From assembly GCA_026417415.1 (NCBI GenBank), contig JAOADG010000033.1, positions 1 to 34,931 on the forward strand: 34,931 nucleotides of DNA, read 5' to 3'. Shown here piece after piece: positions 9,669-26,510 of the stretch. Each line of letters begins with the position of its first letter. Position 1 is the stretch's first letter. This DNA comes from a bacterium. GTDB lineage: Bacteria; Electryoneota; JAOADG01. The translations under genes were made by a program, and so were the position numbers. The notes under the pieces were generated by a model. The model was not told where the DNA came from, made no database searches, and saw only the letters and a list, made by a program, of their open reading frames with translations.

Positions 9669-11666
9669 CTATTTGACCAGTACCATTTTGATGGATTTGC
9701 TTTGGTTATAGGAATTGGTCAAACGAGCAACGTAAACCCCACTGGTTAACGCTTTTGCATCAAAGGTTATTGAATAACTCCCTGCATTGAGCACACCTTG
9801 TTTGAGTGTTGCGACAACTCTGCCTTGAACATCAAACACCTCAAGATTTATCGGCATAGGGTAGTTTAAGGTAAACTGAATTGAAGTAGTGGCATTAAAG
9901 GGGTTGGGATAGTTCCCAGCCAAATGAAACCCAATAGGTGACTGACTTTCCATCGGTTCGGGAGTGGAATTTGTTGAAAAATCAATCATTCGTAACGGGA
10001 TTAAGGGGGTGGTAGGAATCAGTTGCTTGGGAATTCTTTGGTAGTTAAAATCGTTGTGCGTCCAACCCCCTTCGGTCTGTAACACAAAACCTGCGTCATA
10101 ATCGGTGATATACGAAATATGGATGTAGTCATCCACCCAACGATTGGCAGAAGGCCAGTGTTCGCTGCGACATTGACCCATGGGAGCATTGGGAGTACGG
10201 GTATTGGTCACATTGGTCCCATACGACCAACGATCCCCATTATTGGTAGAAACCGCAATCATCAAGTCAAAATTGCACTCTTCGCTAAGCGAAACGTCTT
10301 GCATAAGTGTTGAATCGTTAGGATCATAGTGAGCAGTAAACACCATATACAAATAACCGGTACTCCAATCTTGCGTAAGTGATGGACGCATCACGGTAGT
10401 GTTCCAAGCGCCGGGATTTGCTAAAAGTGGCGACCAAAAATTTCCCCCTAATGCGGCCATATGGATAACCGTGGGTTGGGACTGACGCCAATGCCAAATA
10501 TTGCCAAATACATACGCTGCCGTATCATCATAAATGGTTTGTCCTAATGAATCGACACGGTGTACATCCCAACGGAAAAATTGCAAAGTCGTAAAGGCAC
10601 AATGGAGTTCATCATTGCGATCATACAGCAAACTAATGTCGTTGTAGGCACGAAAGGTATCCATATTGGCGGCAGCTGTGTCGGGAAGGTAGGAGGGAAT
10701 CGGATTCCGCCAATTGGTGATGTATTGAAACGCATCAAAGTTCCAAGTAAGCCCATCAGGCGATTCAACATACACCACATTGTTGTAGATTTGGTTGCTC
10801 CCAGAGGGAGTAATCCCATTGGGCTCTAAAGACATGGGTCTCATCCAAGCGATGGCGGTTTTGTTGGTAAGACGCGAGGCGGCGACCTCTGCCGCTATAT
10901 TTTCTGTCCGTCCCGGCAATAGAATGGGTGTGCTCCACGTGATTTGGGCGTTAATGGGATCGTACACACCACGGTGATACCACTGATTGTCCGCTTCTCC
11001 GGTGATGTTTTGATAGGTAACCACGTGGACTGCACCATTTCTACCTACGGCTATTCTGGGCCAAATGGCGTTGGCAGTGGTTCCATTCCATGTGGCTAAA
11101 GACATAGGGGCTTGCGAGAGAAATGCTCCCACACCAAACTCAAGATCAAAATAGACGTTGCTGGTAGTCACCGAAGCACGGGGGTTGTTTTCGTGAAATG
11201 CTAAAAAGGGTAACCCACTGCTGGAATAGACCCCTAGACAGGTAAAGCCACTGCGAGTGATAGTGGAGGGGTGAGCGGGAATCCCGTATTGGCCAAATGC
11301 CAACTGATTGCTCGCAGGGTAATACAGATTGTAATGTACGGTGCGGTTGGTAGCGGCACTGTCAATCCCGCGCATATAAGTAAAATGCAGGGCTTGGGTA
11401 TTGGTGTCTATTTCTAACATTCGTCCAATGGTCCCATTGTGCTGGCCCTCGTACCAGGTGCGGCCGATGCGGCGAACCATCCCAATGGTATCCGTTACAG
11501 GAGGCAACGTAGGCAACTGGTCCGTATCCAAAAAGGGAGCTGAACGATTTTCACTGCCGTCAAGGATTGGGAACGGCTGTTGGGAAATCTCGCAGAGTGT
11601 TTTAGAATAGAGAAGCGAACCAGCAATAACAGTCAAAATCAAGCAAATTAAAGCAGAACGATGCAT
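9669..11666 (-). CDS. T9SS cargo with sialidase-like propeller
   Basis: A 665-residue secreted protein. An N-terminal signal peptide (about 1-25) is followed by a large beta-rich body with an Asp-box-like motif (STNNGDRWS), suggesting a BNR/sialidase-type propeller. The C-terminal about 85 residues are a type IX sorting domain: GNYPNPFNATTSIQF, then VFDVQGRVVATLKQG, and the final GVYVARLTNSYNQSKSIKMVLVK. Such proteins cross the outer membrane through the type IX machinery and are anchored or released. No catalytic residues could be picked out, so enzyme activity is uncertain. A GGGAGG ribosome site precedes the ATG. It is divergent from the gene at 11761. Confidence 0.88.
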   Translation of the reverse strand: MHRSALICLILTVIAGSLLYSKTLCEISQQPFPILDGSENRSAPFLDTDQLPTLPPVTDTIGMVRRIGRTWYEGQHNGTIGRMLEIDTNTQALHFTYMRGIDSAATNRTVHYNLYYPASNQLAFGQYGIPAHPSTITRSGFTCLGVYSSSGLPFLAFHENNPRASVTTSNVYFDLEFGVGAFLSQAPMSLATWNGTTANAIWPRIAVGRNGAVHVVTYQNITGEADNQWYHRGVYDPINAQITWSTPILLPGRTENIAAEVAASRLTNKTAIAWMRPMSLEPNGITPSGSNQIYNNVVYVESPDGLTWNFDAFQYITNWRNPIPSYLPDTAAANMDTFRAYNDISLLYDRNDELHCAFTTLQFFRWDVHRVDSLGQTIYDDTAAYVFGNIWHWRQSQPTVIHMAALGGNFWSPLLANPGAWNTTVMRPSLTQDWSTGYLYMVFTAHYDPNDSTLMQDVSLSEECNFDLMIAVSTNNGDRWSYGTNVTNTRTPNAPMGQCRSEHWPSANRWVDDYIHISYITDYDAGFVLQTEGGWTHNDFNYQRIPKQLIPTTPLIPLRMIDFSTNSTPEPMESQSPIGFHLAGNYPNPFNATTSIQFTLNYPMPINLEVFDVQGRVVATLKQGVLNAGSYSITFDAKALTSGVYVARLTNSYNQSKSIKMVLVK

Positions 11667-14996: not shown

Positions 14997-17018
14997 CTAT
15001 TGTGATCTATCACTGTTTTCAACCTTTTCTTGGATAATACTTTGATGCGGTGGATAAATTTGATTGTTTTTGAGTACATGCAACGTGGTTTGATAATAAG
15101 CATGTAGATAACTCCTCAAAGAGTTAGCTAACATAGGTTCGTGATGAAGTGCATTGATTTGTTCCGATGGATCTACGTACGGGCGTATCAATTTTAAGTC
15201 AAAATCTAAATTGTTCAATAAAATTGCATTTTGATAAGCAAAACCGACGTAGTTTGCGTGGGTAAAATAGGCAAATTGATGGAGCGTATCTTCATCAAAA
15301 AACGATTTTCCAAAGCTAGAATGGGGTACGCTCAATTGCAATAAATCCAAAATGGTCGGGATTATAGACACTTGTGAAGTGAAATACGTGTATTCTTTAG
15401 CAGATAAACGTGTAGGCGCAAAGATGAGACAACCGACACGAAATCTACATTGGATGTCCGAAGAAGTTTCGGAGGTATGGTCACCTATCAAAATGTATAT
15501 GGTTTCGGAAAAACGTGGACGCTTTGACTCCTCTACAAAAAATTGTTTTAGTTCACGATCAAGATTTGCAAAAGAGTTATATAACTCGGCTTTTGGCAAA
15601 TGTTTAGCAAACGGTGGATAAAAATCCGAGGGTAATAGGTAAGGTGAATGTGTAGATAACGTAAACGCTGCGATATGGCTTGGGGTCGGCATCGTATCCA
15701 ATTCCTTGGTAATACGGCGCAAAACATAACGATCCCAAATCCCCCAATGTCCATCGTCTTCCTGTTTAGAAAACTGTTCTTTGCTGTAAAAGATCGGATA
15801 ACCACAACTATTGGCCAATTCTTGAATACCCATAGACCCTTTGGCTGCACCGTGGATAAATTTGCAATGGTAACCATTTTCTGAAAGAATAGAACCTAAA
15901 CCTCTTAGAGTTGATTGTTCGTATTCACCCCCGATAAACGTACCTCCCATAAGATTGGGAATTCCACCGATAATTGCCGAAATTCCTTCCATAGAACGTG
16001 TTCCTACCGCATAACAGTTGGTAAAAATCACGCTGTGTTGAGATAAAGAATCAAAAAACGGCATGGTCTGTATTTTGCCGTGAAATGAATATAGATACTC
16101 TGCCGAAAGTGATTCAATAATGAGCAAAACTATATTTGGGCGAGGTGTTATGGGGTGTCTTGGATATTCTTTTTTACGAAGAAGAGGATATTTGGGATGT
16201 AGAAAACTCTCGTTTTTTGACTGAACCAACTGTTTGGTCATTGAGATGGCTTGCTCCATAGGCATCCAGTGTCGTTGTACACCTTTTCTTGCAAATTTTG
16301 AAGTGATATAGGTGTAGTAACCATTTAAGGTAAGATGAGCGGCTAACACGTTGTCTGAACGGAACGCATGGCCGATTCTTAATGGTTTATATTGAAACCC
16401 GCCTCTTAAAAAAAGAATGATTATACAGATGTAGATAAGTAACCCGATACTATATTGAAACCAGTTGATTTTTGCTGTAGTTAGGTTGTTGATAAGTGGT
16501 TGTAGAAATCGCTCAAAGAGATAGGGAATAAACCAATAGAGAAACAAAATGAGAAGCAGGGCTTTCGGATAATTGGCAACAAGCAATTTGAACATGGTCC
16601 AGAGATCGTGCTGAATGGCAGACACTTCAAAGGTCAGATGTTTTCCCGCTTCACCATAATACAGGGTGTCCGCCCACAAGATCCCAATACTAAACCAATA
16701 GGAAAGGACCAAAACCAAAACAGAGAAGTACACCATCAACTTTCGGAGGGAAGGGATAGCACTAATTGAAAATCCTAAAAATGCAGGAATAAGCATCATG
16801 GTGGTGGTAGATAAGTCAAAGCGTAACATTAAATCAAGTGTTGATAAAACCTCTCGGAGGGGTACAAACTTTTGAAAATCGGGGTAACGAAGGTAAAATG
16901 CTATCCTTGTGATCCAAATTGCTATCCATCCCAATAATAGCAATTTGAAAAAGAGGATACTGAGGAGCTTAAAATAGTTTTCCGATTTGGGTTGGAGTTC
17001 CGTTTTCAAAGTATTCAT
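14997..17018 (-). CDS. LTA-synthase-like membrane sulfatase/phosphotransferase
   Basis: A 673-residue membrane protein of the LtaS/OpgB alkaline-phosphatase superfamily. Five to six helices in the first about 210 residues are followed by an extracytoplasmic catalytic domain. It begins RPNIVLLIIESLSAEYL, where Glu is a metal ligand. The nucleophile region reads GTRSMEG, with Ser (or the adjacent Thr) as the attacking residue. Further metal ligands appear in GIWDRY, LSTHSPY and IGDHTSE. In Gram-negatives such proteins move phosphoglycerol or phosphoethanolamine groups onto surface glycans or lipids. The start is uncertain: ATG 17018 is used, but GTG 17030 and TTG 17033 are in frame. The neighbouring membrane gene lies upstream on the same strand. 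Confidence 0.85.
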   Translation of the reverse strand: MNTLKTELQPKSENYFKLLSILFFKLLLLGWIAIWITRIAFYLRYPDFQKFVPLREVLSTLDLMLRFDLSTTTMMLIPAFLGFSISAIPSLRKLMVYFSVLVLVLSYWFSIGILWADTLYYGEAGKHLTFEVSAIQHDLWTMFKLLVANYPKALLLILFLYWFIPYLFERFLQPLINNLTTAKINWFQYSIGLLIYICIIILFLRGGFQYKPLRIGHAFRSDNVLAAHLTLNGYYTYITSKFARKGVQRHWMPMEQAISMTKQLVQSKNESFLHPKYPLLRKKEYPRHPITPRPNIVLLIIESLSAEYLYSFHGKIQTMPFFDSLSQHSVIFTNCYAVGTRSMEGISAIIGGIPNLMGGTFIGGEYEQSTLRGLGSILSENGYHCKFIHGAAKGSMGIQELANSCGYPIFYSKEQFSKQEDDGHWGIWDRYVLRRITKELDTMPTPSHIAAFTLSTHSPYLLPSDFYPPFAKHLPKAELYNSFANLDRELKQFFVEESKRPRFSETIYILIGDHTSETSSDIQCRFRVGCLIFAPTRLSAKEYTYFTSQVSIIPTILDLLQLSVPHSSFGKSFFDEDTLHQFAYFTHANYVGFAYQNAILLNNLDFDLKLIRPYVDPSEQINALHHEPMLANSLRSYLHAYYQTTLHVLKNNQIYPPHQSIIQEKVENSDRSQ

Positions 17019-17049
17019 CTTGGAGTGCACCAACCCAAACCCTTTGAAT

Positions 17050-22224: not shown

Positions 22225-24621
22225 ATGAGTAAAGCGGATTTGCATGTCCATTCCAAGTATTCAGAGCATCCTTCGGAGTGGTTTCTCAAGCGGTTAGGTG
22301 CGGCAGAATCCTATACGGATCCTTTTCATGTTTATCGTATGGCAAAAGAGAAAGGGATGAATTGGGTCACCATTACCGATCACAATCGCATTGAAGGGGC
22401 GTTGTTATTGAATGAGAAGTATCCGAAGGAAACGTTTTTAGGAGTTGAAGCAACCGCATATTTTCCAGAAGATGATTGCAAGATCCACGTCTTGTGCTAT
22501 GGATTCAGCGCTGAGCAGTTTGAAGTGATGGATCGTCTTCGTAATGATGTATATCAATTTAGAGATTATTTGGTACAAGAAAACATCGTACATTCCTTAG
22601 CCCATGCGACGTATGCGGTGAACAACAAATTGCAATACCATCATTTAGAGCGTCTCATTTTGTTGTTTAACATTTTTGAATCCATCAATGGCGGCCGCAA
22701 TCGTATGAATAATCTGCGTTGGACGTATGCACTATCCAAACTCACACCAGAGCATATAGAAGATTATCGCAGACGATACCACATAGAACCCGTCGGTGAT
22801 ACGCCTTGGATTAAAGGATTTACAGGCGGTTCAGACGATCACGCTGGAATCTTTATTGCGGATACTTATACCGAAGCAGAAGGAAAAACACCGCAAGAAT
22901 TTTTACAGAGCATCGCAAACCGACAAGGGAAGGCGCATGGAAGGCACAACGATTTTCAATCGTTAGTGTTTTCAGTGTATAAAATTGCATACGATTTTAC
23001 CAAAGAAAAAGGAAAAGAGTTTAGTGGAGCGCCGTTGCTTAGCCAATTGACAGAAGCCATTTTTGAAAAGAAATCGTTTTCTAAAACCAATCTTCTCAAA
23101 ATCAAGGGCTTAAAAGCCATTAACGGCAAACGCAAGCAGAAACGTCGCATCCAAGATCTGTTGTTTGATCTGATAGAAAAAGCAAATGAAGAAAAACCGA
23201 TTCAACAAAAGTTGAAAGATACTTTTGAAACCATTGCAGAGACCAGCGATGAACTATTAAAACTGTTGCTTCAATCGGTGGAATCGGATCTCATTAAAGG
23301 GGATGTGGACCATCTTATCAAGAATTTGACTACTGCTTTGCCCGGTGTGTTTTTATCCGTACCCTTTTTTACTTCTTTTCGGCATATGTACAAAGGTCGC
23401 GAGTTGCTTAACGAACTGCAAAAGCGCTTTGGAAACGGTTCCGCGCACAAAAGAATTTTGTGGTTTACCGATACGTTAAACGATTTGAATGGCGTGTCTG
23501 TAACGCTGCATACCATTGGCAAGCTTTCAATGATGCGAGACCAAGAGATCAAGATTGTCACCTCTGTGGATGCCAATGCGCTGATGCCATCGCCTTACAT
23601 CATTCATCTACCATCTATCTATTCTTACAACTTGCCGTACTACGAAAGTTATGTGTTACGCATCCCATCGCTATTGCGTTCGTTGGATATAATCTACCGC
23701 TACGAGCCAGACGAAATCTATCTTTCAACGCCCGGTCCCATGGGTTTGATTGGGCTTTTCATTGCAAGATTGATGTCCATTCCTTGTATCGGAATTTATC
23801 ATACCGACTTTCGTGCTCAAGCCAAAGAGATTGTAAAAGATGATGGTGTGGTGAAATTGTTGGATTCTTATGTACAGTGGTTTTACAAAATGGTAGATAC
23901 CATCCGCGTTCCAACCCAAGAGTATATGAACATATTGGAACAGCGCGGTTTTGATCGCACAAGAATGAAATTGTTTACACGTGGGGTAGATACGCATCAC
24001 TTTAGCCGACAAAATGTAGATAAATCCTATCTTCAAGAAAGGTTTGCAGTTCCCAAAGAGGGGATCCATTTCTTGTATGCAGGCCGCATCTCAAAAGACA
24101 AAAATTTGGAATTTTTATTTCAAGTGTTTGAAAACGTACAAAAAGCAATTCCGAACGCACGTCTTCTTCTTGCTGGTACGGGTCCAAATGTGGCTGAATT
24201 TGAAACACTAAGTACTCAAATGAAACATATCCATTTTATCGGAAAAGTAGCCCAAACGGAACTTCCAAAACTTTACTCTGCTGTGGATTTCTTGGTGTTC
24301 CCGAGCAATACAGACACCTTTGGGATGGTGGTAGTAGAAGCGTTAAGTTGTGGAGTACCGGTCTTTGTTTCCAACATCGGTGGACCAAAAGAGTTGGTAG
24401 AAGGGACACGTGCAGGTGTGGTTTTACCTGCCAACCACCTCCAAGCATGGACGGATGCGATTGTGCAAACCGTGCTGAAGTGCCAGCAATATCCAGAAAA
24501 CTACCTGCTAATGCAAACAGAAGCACGAAAAATAGCGCTGGAACGGTCCAATTGGGATAAAATTTTCCACGAATTGACCGCTTTTGAAGAACCGAAATGG
24601 TTGCTTGATGCACGGTTATAG
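22225..24621 (+). CDS. PHP phosphoesterase-GT4 glycosyltransferase fusion
   Basis: A 798-residue cytosolic fusion. The N-terminal PHP domain (about 1-270) has the metal ligands DLHVHSKYS, TITDHNRIEG, SLAHATYAV and GGSDDHAGI. A helical linker (about 280-390) follows. The C-terminal part (about 405-798) is a GT4 (GT-B fold) glycosyltransferase: TDTLNDLNGVSVTLHTIG in the acceptor half, then LYAGRISKDKNLEFLFQVFENV, GTGP, and FPSNTDTFGMVVVEALSCGVPV with GGPKELVEG, as in GDP-mannose- or UDP-sugar-dependent transferases of the PimB/SqdX group. PHP may hydrolyse a sugar phosphate or remove a phosphate after transfer. It has an AGGAGA ribosome site, is divergent from feoB, and a strong terminator follows. 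Confidence 0.9.
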   Translation: MSKADLHVHSKYSEHPSEWFLKRLGAAESYTDPFHVYRMAKEKGMNWVTITDHNRIEGALLLNEKYPKETFLGVEATAYFPEDDCKIHVLCYGFSAEQFEVMDRLRNDVYQFRDYLVQENIVHSLAHATYAVNNKLQYHHLERLILLFNIFESINGGRNRMNNLRWTYALSKLTPEHIEDYRRRYHIEPVGDTPWIKGFTGGSDDHAGIFIADTYTEAEGKTPQEFLQSIANRQGKAHGRHNDFQSLVFSVYKIAYDFTKEKGKEFSGAPLLSQLTEAIFEKKSFSKTNLLKIKGLKAINGKRKQKRRIQDLLFDLIEKANEEKPIQQKLKDTFETIAETSDELLKLLLQSVESDLIKGDVDHLIKNLTTALPGVFLSVPFFTSFRHMYKGRELLNELQKRFGNGSAHKRILWFTDTLNDLNGVSVTLHTIGKLSMMRDQEIKIVTSVDANALMPSPYIIHLPSIYSYNLPYYESYVLRIPSLLRSLDIIYRYEPDEIYLSTPGPMGLIGLFIARLMSIPCIGIYHTDFRAQAKEIVKDDGVVKLLDSYVQWFYKMVDTIRVPTQEYMNILEQRGFDRTRMKLFTRGVDTHHFSRQNVDKSYLQERFAVPKEGIHFLYAGRISKDKNLEFLFQVFENVQKAIPNARLLLAGTGPNVAEFETLSTQMKHIHFIGKVAQTELPKLYSAVDFLVFPSNTDTFGMVVVEALSCGVPVFVSNIGGPKELVEGTRAGVVLPANHLQAWTDAIVQTVLKCQQYPENYLLMQTEARKIALERSNWDKIFHELTAFEEPKWLLDARL

Positions 24622-24650
24622 AGAAATTGAAACGGTCTGGTAAATCATTG

Positions 24651-24692
24651 GGCTGTGGATAAATCAGGTGAATTATCCACAGCCATTTTTTT
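24651..24692 (+). terminator. Terminator of the PHP-GT4 gene
   Basis: GGCTGTGGATAA (24651-24662) and TTATCCACAGCC (24673-24684) form a perfect 12-bp stem with a 10-nt loop, followed by ATTTTTTT. Each arm contains a consensus DnaA box (TTATCCACA) in inverted orientation. Confidence 0.9.
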
Positions 24693-24697
24693 ACAAC

Positions 24698-24725
24698 AAA
24701 AAAGGCAGCCCTTGATTAAGCCGCC
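24698..24725 (-). terminator. Leftward terminator
   Basis: On the minus strand GGCGGC pairs with GCTGCC (one G-U) around a 10-nt loop and is followed by six Ts. It implies a minus-strand transcript arriving from the gene-poor region to the right. Confidence 0.5.
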
Positions 24726-25117
24726 CTTTTTGCCATCCTACGCGCACAAACAAGTCAAAACACTTGTATCACTTCATCAGTAGGAGTGCCGGTGAACCAT
24801 TCAATCAAACTTTTCAATCACCACTCACCGGCAAATTACCAATTCCCATCACCTCCTACCGCAATTATGCATTTCCCAGTCTTCATCCGACCCGAAACCT
24901 GTGTCATTCAATTGCATATGGTCTTATCTTCTCCTTCTTCCACAATCATCTTCCAACGTTACCACCACTTCTATCTATAAAAAGAGCAAACCGCGTGCCA
25001 CGCTACTTTTTTTCACGTATGCTCAAGGATCTACCTTTGCCCTACATCTATCTATAGAAAATACGTAATTTCAAAAGAAGTGTGGGCGATTTCTACGTGC
25101 AAAATTCAAATGTTGAA

Positions 25118-25205
25118 TGCAAAATTTGCACTCAGATTGAAAAGTTTTAGATATTTCTTAAAAATAGTGCTCAAAGAAACGACTCAAAACATTGCAAAAT
25201 TTGCA
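25118..25205. repeat. Two copies of TGCAAAATTTGCA
   Basis: The same 13-base odd palindrome (arms TGCAAA/TTTGCA around one base) occurs at 25118-25130 and 25193-25205, spaced 75 bp apart. A partial relative (GTGCAAAATTC) lies at 25098. They could be binding sites of a dimeric regulator. Confidence 0.45.
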
Positions 25206-25329
25206 CAAATGAAAACTCTAAGAGGAACATACAACCTCTATTTGCTTTGGTTACGGTGAATTCAAAGGGATTTTAGAAGATTTCTGCGATAGCCGCCCTA
25301 AACCTTACTCAAATACCCAAATGAGGGAC

Positions 25330-25358
25330 TTGACAAACAGAAAAACACGATGTATATT
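25330..25358 (+). promoter_or_regulatory. tRNA-Met promoter
   Basis: TTGACA (25330-25335) and TATATT (25353-25358) are 17 bp apart. The -10 ends 30 bp before the mature tRNA. This is the strongest promoter match in the window. Confidence 0.8.
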
Positions 25359-25388: not shown

Positions 25389-25462
25389 GGCGGGGTAGCT
25401 CAGTTGGTTAGAGCAGCGGAATCATAATCCGCGTGTCGGGGGTTCAAGTCCCTCCCCCGCTA
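25389..25462 (+). tRNA. tRNA-Met (anticodon CAT, elongator type)
   Basis: A 74-nt cloverleaf with acceptor GGCGGGG/CCCCGCT (the first pair is G-U). The anticodon stem GCGGA/TCCGC holds loop ATCATAA with anticodon CAT. The T arm is GGGGGTTCAAGTCCCTC and the discriminator is A. CCA is not encoded. The GTAGCTCAGTTGGTTAGAGCA core resembles elongator Met; a lysidine-modified Ile2 tRNA is the alternative. Confidence 0.9.
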
Positions 25463-25781
25463 CCGTATCTATTTCCGTTCTTTTCAACCAAAAGTAAGGA
25501 TAATCCTTTTTTATTTTGCTTCAAATCGCTAACCTTTCTCGTTTCGCTTTTTTCATCTTTCTATTTACCGACCGAATGGAACGAAGTTTTAAGCCGTTAT
25601 CCTTTTGAACTACGATAGAAACTGGCTTATCAAAGTCGTACACTCTTGGTTTTTCGCATCCTTTGACCGTAGATAGGTTTGCCGTGATCTAAGGTCAAAG
25701 AGTTTTGGTTCAAAATCTCTTGTTCCCTATGGCAAACCCATAGGCAAAGAAACGATACAACTTTTCCATTCGGAGCGTGTT
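25463..25781. other. Spacer with structured-RNA candidate
   Basis: No gene is seen. It contains the hairpins described at 25590-25744 and a possible promoter, TTGAAC (25605-25610) to TATCAA (25628-25633) with 17-bp spacing. That promoter would start a leader RNA of about 140 nt for the LamG lipoprotein. Confidence 0.5.
25661..25744 (+). ncRNA. Candidate kissing-loop leader RNA
   Basis: Hairpin 1: CTTTGACC (25661-25668) pairs with GGTCAAAG (25693-25700), then one G-A mismatch and TAGAT/ATCTA, closing a 12-nt loop. Hairpin 2: CCTATGG (25726-25732) pairs with CCATAGG (25738-25744) around CAAAC. The first loop contains GGTTTGCC (25676-25683), the exact reverse complement of GGCAAACC (25731-25738) at the second loop, so at least 5 and up to 8 loop-loop pairs are possible. 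The structure ends about 27 nt before the ribosome site of the LamG gene. No known riboswitch class was recognised. Confidence 0.45.
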
Positions 25782-26510
25782 ATGTTTCCATCCATAGTGA
25801 CCTTTACTTTTTTTCTACTTGTTGGATTTCTTGGTTGTAAAGACCATTCATCACCATCTGCCCCAACCGATATGGCGGTCCCAACCCAAGGTTTGGTAGC
25901 GTACTACCCTTTGGATGGCAATTGCGGTGATTCCAGCGGAAACGGTCGTCACGGTACGTTAAACAATACGACCATAGTCGCCGATCGGTTCAATCAAACG
26001 AACCGTGCTCTCTATTTTAATGGAGCAAACAGTTATGCTGAACTCGGGGACTATTTCAATTACCCTTATTTTTCATTATCGCTGTGGGTAATGCCCGATT
26101 CTACACAAGTGCGATGGGCAGATATCTTAGAAAATGCTCACACCAACGACCGCTCGTGGAACATTCAACAGGCATACGATTATTCTAACGAAATGTCTTT
26201 TGGCGTATGTATAAACCCAAGAGCAACCGATTCACCGATTGACACCTTGCAACCCAAGGTCTGGCAACATCTGGTATGTATTAAAGACAGTTTGCATACG
26301 TGGATGTACATCAATGGCGTGCTGGCAGATTCTGCCACTCACCTCGGACCCACCATCTACGATGGAACACAACAGTTAGGATTAGCACGCTGGTACACCA
26401 ACGGCTATCGCACCCGTTTTTGGAAAGGGGCGATGGATGATGTGCGGTTGTACAATCGTCCTTTATCACGTAACGAAGTGGTGGCACTTTATAGAGAGCG
26501 TGGGTATTAG
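25782..26510 (+). CDS. LamG-domain lipoprotein
   Basis: A 242-residue lipoprotein. The signal peptide ends in a lipobox-like LVGFLGC with Cys at about 19, followed by a Ser/Pro-rich linker. A single LamG/concanavalin-like domain (about 35-240) has the usual opening LVAYYPLDGNCGDSSGNGRH, ALYFNGANSYAELGD, FSLSLWVMPDS, the VWQHLVCIKDSLHTWMYING stretch and the closing GAMDDVRLYNRPLSRNEVVALY. These domains bind carbohydrate or protein ligands at the cell surface. GGAG precedes the ATG. A structured RNA candidate lies in its leader. Confidence 0.85.
   Translation: MFPSIVTFTFFLLVGFLGCKDHSSPSAPTDMAVPTQGLVAYYPLDGNCGDSSGNGRHGTLNNTTIVADRFNQTNRALYFNGANSYAELGDYFNYPYFSLSLWVMPDSTQVRWADILENAHTNDRSWNIQQAYDYSNEMSFGVCINPRATDSPIDTLQPKVWQHLVCIKDSLHTWMYINGVLADSATHLGPTIYDGTQQLGLARWYTNGYRTRFWKGAMDDVRLYNRPLSRNEVVALYRERGY

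What the first reader, a model, noticed from the sequence alone, without database searches (positions are those of the whole stretch)
25590..25744. Candidate kissing-loop RNA before the LamG lipoprotein
Two stable hairpins have loops with exact 8-base reverse complementarity (GGTTTGCC and GGCAAACC). A third inverted repeat (TAAGCC/GGCTTA, 25590-25629) lies just 5', and a promoter-like pair precedes the stems. Loop-loop pairing of this kind marks riboswitches and other structured RNAs, and I recognise no known class.
Basis: partly seen in the sequence, partly recalled or inferred. Interest (0 to 1): 0.7.

Follow-up and report, generated by a model that had tools for sequence, protein, structure and literature searches.

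The report
Single-copy leader with chance-level kissing loops
The stretch before a surface lipoprotein gene does contain well-folding inverted repeats, but no relative of it was found in any genome searched, the proposed loop-loop contact fits only partly, and nothing here shows it to be more than an ordinary, perhaps weakly regulatory, gene leader.

Summary
The sequences described are present, between tRNA-Met (25389-25464) and a LamG lipoprotein ORF (25782-26510). Hairpin HA (25661-25700, 13 bp) holds GGTTTGCC in a 12-nt loop. Hairpin HB (25726-25744, 7 bp) has a loop of only CAAAC, so three of the eight GGCAAACC bases are stem bases; an 8-bp kiss must open two G-C pairs.

Support is thin. 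Loop complementarity this good occurs in 0.5% of shuffles. The chosen 206 nt fold at z about -3.5 to -4, but the whole leader only at -1.3. The antisense strand folds better than the sense strand, and the start region is no more buried than those of other genes here. No Rfam family matches. No homologue was found in 60 related genomes (38 of its phylum), phages or plasmids, so covariation could not be tested. The nearest promoter-like pair matches 8 of 12 and would remove the 5' arm of P1.

Best reading: a single-copy leader with incidental structure. SD sequestration by P1 is the main rival. A new kissing-loop RNA class is unsupported, not excluded. Interest is low.

The parts
25330..25358 (+). 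promoter-like pair TTGACA-17-TATATT upstream of the tRNA
   Evidence: 11/12 match; consensus only
25389..25464 (+). tRNA-Met (CAT)
   Evidence: ARAGORN; Rfam RF00005 66.4 bits; 96% identical copy in the same-family genome
25496..25517 (+). weak terminator-like AAGGA-TAA-TCCTT + T-rich tail after the tRNA
   Evidence: read from sequence; below the scan's criteria
25572..25598 (+). 5' arm of long-range closing stem P1 (CCGAATGGA, GAAGTT, TA, CGTT)
   Evidence: fold; outer helix pair probability about 1.0 in 25570-25775
25590..25629 (+).
25605..25633 (+). weak promoter-like pair TTGAAC-17-TATCAA
   Evidence: 8/12 match
25661..25700 (+). hairpin HA, 13 bp with G/A mismatch, loop AGGTTTGCCGTG
25726..25744 (+). 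hairpin HB, 7 bp, loop CAAAC
25751..25773 (+). 3' arm of P1; contains GG of the Shine-Dalgarno sequence
25772..25775 (+). GGAG Shine-Dalgarno sequence
   Evidence: SD-like motifs precede most genes of the window
25782..26510 (+). 242-aa LamG-domain lipoprotein (signal peptide with GFLGC lipobox)
   Evidence: Pfam PF13385, E 8.1e-20; lipobox read from the sequence

Best explanation
A single-copy, lineage-specific intergenic leader between a tRNA-Met gene and a LamG lipoprotein gene. It holds several inverted repeats that fold fairly well, and the match between the two hairpin loops is incidental. If transcribed as part of the lipoprotein mRNA it acts as an ordinary structured 5' leader, with no dedicated kissing-loop switch. 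Shown: the repeats, their predicted fold, the lack of detectable homologues. Inferred: transcription, and the absence of selection on the loops.
For: No homologue by BLAST or by covariance model in any related genome, in phages or plasmids, or as a repeat in the own genome. Whole-leader fold z -1.3, with 51 of 400 shuffles as good. Antisense folds at least as well as sense. A stretch antisense to a coding gene at 16001 reaches z -4.7 by the same measure. Mean unpaired probability just before the start codon is 0.30, within the range of other genes in the window. A long-range inverted repeat as good as the outer part of P1 arises in 88 of 1000 shuffles of the leader. Bare 8-mer inverted pairs are common here.
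Against: The chosen 206 nt fold at z about -3.5 to -4 (0/600 and 1/300 shuffles), and the best 206-nt stretch of the leader beats 240 of 240 shuffles even when its place may move. P1 pairs exactly over the SD. Two-hairpin loop complementarity of 8 is a 0.5% event.
Confidence: 0.5

Rival explanations
1. Cis-acting translational control: P1 closes a domain holding HA and HB and buries the Shine-Dalgarno GGAG of the lipoprotein mRNA. A signal (ligand, temperature, protein or tRNA processing) opens P1; a loop-loop contact, if it forms, stabilises the closed state.
For: P1 pair probability 0.88-1.0 and SD GG unpaired probability about 0 in transcripts starting at 25465 or 25560; the genome uses SD motifs; HA and HB both reach about 0.97 when P1 is present.
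Against: SD burial is not unusual among genes of this window, and the SD stays paired by other partners when P1 is absent. If the 25605 promoter is real the 5' arm of P1 is not transcribed. No homologues. No ligand or gene-function logic.
Confidence: 0.3
2. A DNA-level element: an imperfect palindrome or decayed mobile element (two inverted copies of a hairpin unit, [HA][centre 25703-25715][HB]) rather than an RNA. Inverted copies of one hairpin give complementary loops automatically.
For: The HA half aligns with the reverse complement of the HB half through GGTTTGCC (29 of 5000 shuffles as good); the covariance model of the core matches its own opposite strand (17.7 bits); both strands fold comparably.
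Against: Single copy in the genome; no transposase noted nearby and no second copy of the tRNA end in the window.
Confidence: 0.12
3. An independent trans-acting small RNA, or a divergent member of a known RNA class too far for Rfam.
For: Compact fold; no Rfam 6S hit above cut-off elsewhere in this genome.
Against: No promoter of 9/12 or better and no terminator meeting the scan's criteria within 25465-25781 on the + strand; no Rfam match except one chance hit up to E 10; the branched fold is unlike the 6S rod.
Confidence: 0.08

Closest known systems
Cobalamin (corrinoid) riboswitch, translational type
   Same: In E. coli btuB and env8HyCbl a kissing loop (L5-L13) modulates an RBS hairpin (PMC10653944); here a possible loop pair lies in a domain whose closing stem pairs the SD.
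   Different: No cobalamin riboswitch match; loop complementarity is 8 rather than about 3-5 pairs; the downstream gene is a LamG lipoprotein, not a B12 gene; no conservation.
Purine and lysine riboswitches (loop-loop contacts of two arms; own knowledge)
   Same: Two hairpins above a closing stem with a possible loop-loop contact.
   Different: No Rfam match; one loop is only 5 nt; the arms sit in different branches of the fold; no matching core sequence.
SD-sequestering 5' leaders and RNA thermometers (own knowledge)
   Same: A long stem would cover the Shine-Dalgarno sequence.
   Different: No Rfam match; the outer P1 helix is a perfect 9-bp stem; no temperature data.

Membership tests
Any Rfam 15 RNA family (including cobalamin, lysine, purine riboswitches, 6S) | covariance-model score at or above the family's cut-off | tested here: not met
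   no hit in 25463-25860 on either strand except Spd-sr07, 18.4 bits against 55 needed, minus strand
New conserved kissing-loop RNA class | homologues with compensatory changes in stems and loop pair | not testable with these tools
   no homologue found in 60 other genomes, so no alignment exists
New conserved kissing-loop RNA class | complementary segments lie in the two hairpin loops | tested here: inconclusive
   GGTTTGCC wholly in the HA loop; only CAAAC of GGCAAACC in the HB loop
SD-sequestering leader | SD paired in the predicted fold | tested here: met
   G25772 and G25773 unpaired probability about 0; but start-site burial is not unusual in this window
SD-sequestering leader | expression rises when the stem is opened | not testable with these tools
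   needs a reporter assay
REP-like or MITE repeat | several copies per genome | tested here: not met
   one BLAST place in own genome; ATNGGTTTGCC 13 hits against 12 for the control

The most novel reading that the evidence does not exclude
A new, very narrowly distributed riboswitch-like leader in which an HA-HB kissing interaction locks a P1-closed domain over the Shine-Dalgarno sequence of a LamG surface lipoprotein.
Probability: 0.07. Interest if true: 0.6.

Novelty: new member of a known kind. Interest (0 to 1): 0.18.

Why it matters
If the structured leader were functional it would be a regulatory leader on a surface lipoprotein in a sparsely sampled lineage. As it stands it mainly shows that complementary loops in one unaligned sequence are weak evidence for an RNA class.

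Tried and rejected
Known RNA classes: Rfam at cut-off and at E up to 10. 6S RNA: nothing over cut-off anywhere in the genome, and the branched fold is not a rod. Positional homologues: where the DNA after the tRNA-Met copy was read in other genomes, there were short terminators or unrelated sequence; the same-family genome has a terminator-like hairpin there. Synteny and close relatives through the neighbouring glycosyltransferase: one distant hit in genome contigs, only distant homologues in the phylum. Covariance models of 206 and 96 nt: only the query itself, plus one E 0.6 match in G018 whose HA-like stem has a 2-nt loop, so it cannot kiss. Viral collection: no match to an exact 18-mer of the HA loop region. 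Repeat family in the own genome. Scar of a tRNA-targeted insertion: no second copy of the tRNA 3' end in the window. Integron attC site and retron msr-msd: considered from memory only; no attC-type core boxes seen by eye and no reverse transcriptase or integrase recognised among the neighbouring ORFs (by eye); not tested further.

Full report
What is there. The window is contig C31 of a 2.2 Mb genome; a C-terminal secretion-type domain on the 9669-11666 ORF suggests the Bacteroidota/Chlorobiota side of bacteria (own knowledge, read). The finding lies in the 317 nt between a tRNA-Met gene (25389-25464) and a 242-aa LamG-domain protein with a lipobox (25782-26510). The start codon has a GGAG six bases before it, and SD-like motifs precede most genes of the window.

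Anatomy. HA: CTTTGACC-G-TAGAT [AGGTTTGCCGTG] ATCTA-A-GGTCAAAG, 25661-25700. HB: CCTATGG [CAAAC] CCATAGG, 25726-25744. The long-range stem P1 joins 25572-25598 to 25751-25773 (CCGAATGGA, GAAGTT, TA, CGTT), and P2 joins 25603-25612 to 25706-25715. Within 25570-25775 the outer P1 helix, HA and HB have pair probabilities mostly of 0.93-1.0, and the alternative 10-bp duplex of the two loop segments has 2%. Without P1 that duplex competes: it is the minimum-energy fold of 25650-25750 and takes 38% in 25640-25781, falling to 16% and 2% in longer transcripts.

The loop claim. All eight bases of GGTTTGCC lie in the HA loop, but only five of GGCAAACC lie in the HB loop. Eight pairs need the two top G-C pairs of HB to open, at about 6.5 kcal/mol. 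That is suggestive, not strong, for a feature picked by eye from 35 kb.

Is the fold more than chance? For the picked 206 nt z is -3.5 to -4.0 (0/600 and 1/300 shuffles), and the best 206-nt stretch of the leader also beats all 240 shuffles when its place may vary, though the length was chosen afterwards. Against this, the whole leader gives z -1.3, the antisense strand folds better than the sense strand (-64.9 against -59.8 for the 206 nt), a stretch at 16001, antisense to a coding gene, gives -4.7, and a long-range inverted repeat as good as the outer part of P1 arises in 8.8% of shuffled leaders. Folding energy alone is generally not accepted as detection of an RNA (Rivas and Eddy as cited in PMC3150283).

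Relatives. BLAST of the region plus tRNA against 40 relatives finds tRNA only. Covariance models of 206 and 96 nt find only the query in 61 genomes, and the 96-nt model again only the query in all 39 genomes held for the phylum, apart from one E 0.6 match without a usable loop. The first look of those genome searches is limited, so a homologue conserved in structure alone could be missed. Phages, plasmids and one viral pattern scan gave nothing. No covariation analysis is therefore possible.

Transcription. The one good promoter-like pair (11/12) precedes the tRNA. A weak terminator-like AAGGATAATCCTTTTTT follows the tRNA at 25496 (read from sequence).

Reading. Most likely this is an ordinary, non-conserved leader with incidental structure (0.5). 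Next is a translation-limiting leader in which P1 covers the SD (0.3). A DNA palindrome made of two inverted hairpin units would explain the complementary loops without any RNA function (0.12), and a trans-acting RNA is least likely (0.08). A kissing-loop switch is a subset of the second reading and has about 0.07.

Noticed in passing
24693-24736 and 24740-25300, minus strand: A 19-bp hairpin with a T-rich tail looks like an intrinsic terminator for minus-strand transcription, yet no minus-strand ORF of 30 aa or more lies between it and the tRNA. The region before it has a strong minus-strand stem (24787-24797/24823-24833) and the minus strand of 24601-24806, terminators included, folds at z -5.2. 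Possible unannotated RNA; no Rfam match and no BLAST relative.
   Followed up: partly
86-370 and 787-942: Palindromic repeats TCCCCCCTTTTCGATG / CGTCGAAAAGGGGGGA on both sides of a DUF559 ORF at 421-786.
   Followed up: no
16001-16206, plus strand (antisense to ORF 14997-17033): Unusually stable predicted fold, z -4.7 on the plus strand and -1.3 on the minus strand.
   Followed up: no
whole genome G000: No 6S RNA match above the Rfam cut-off.
   Followed up: no
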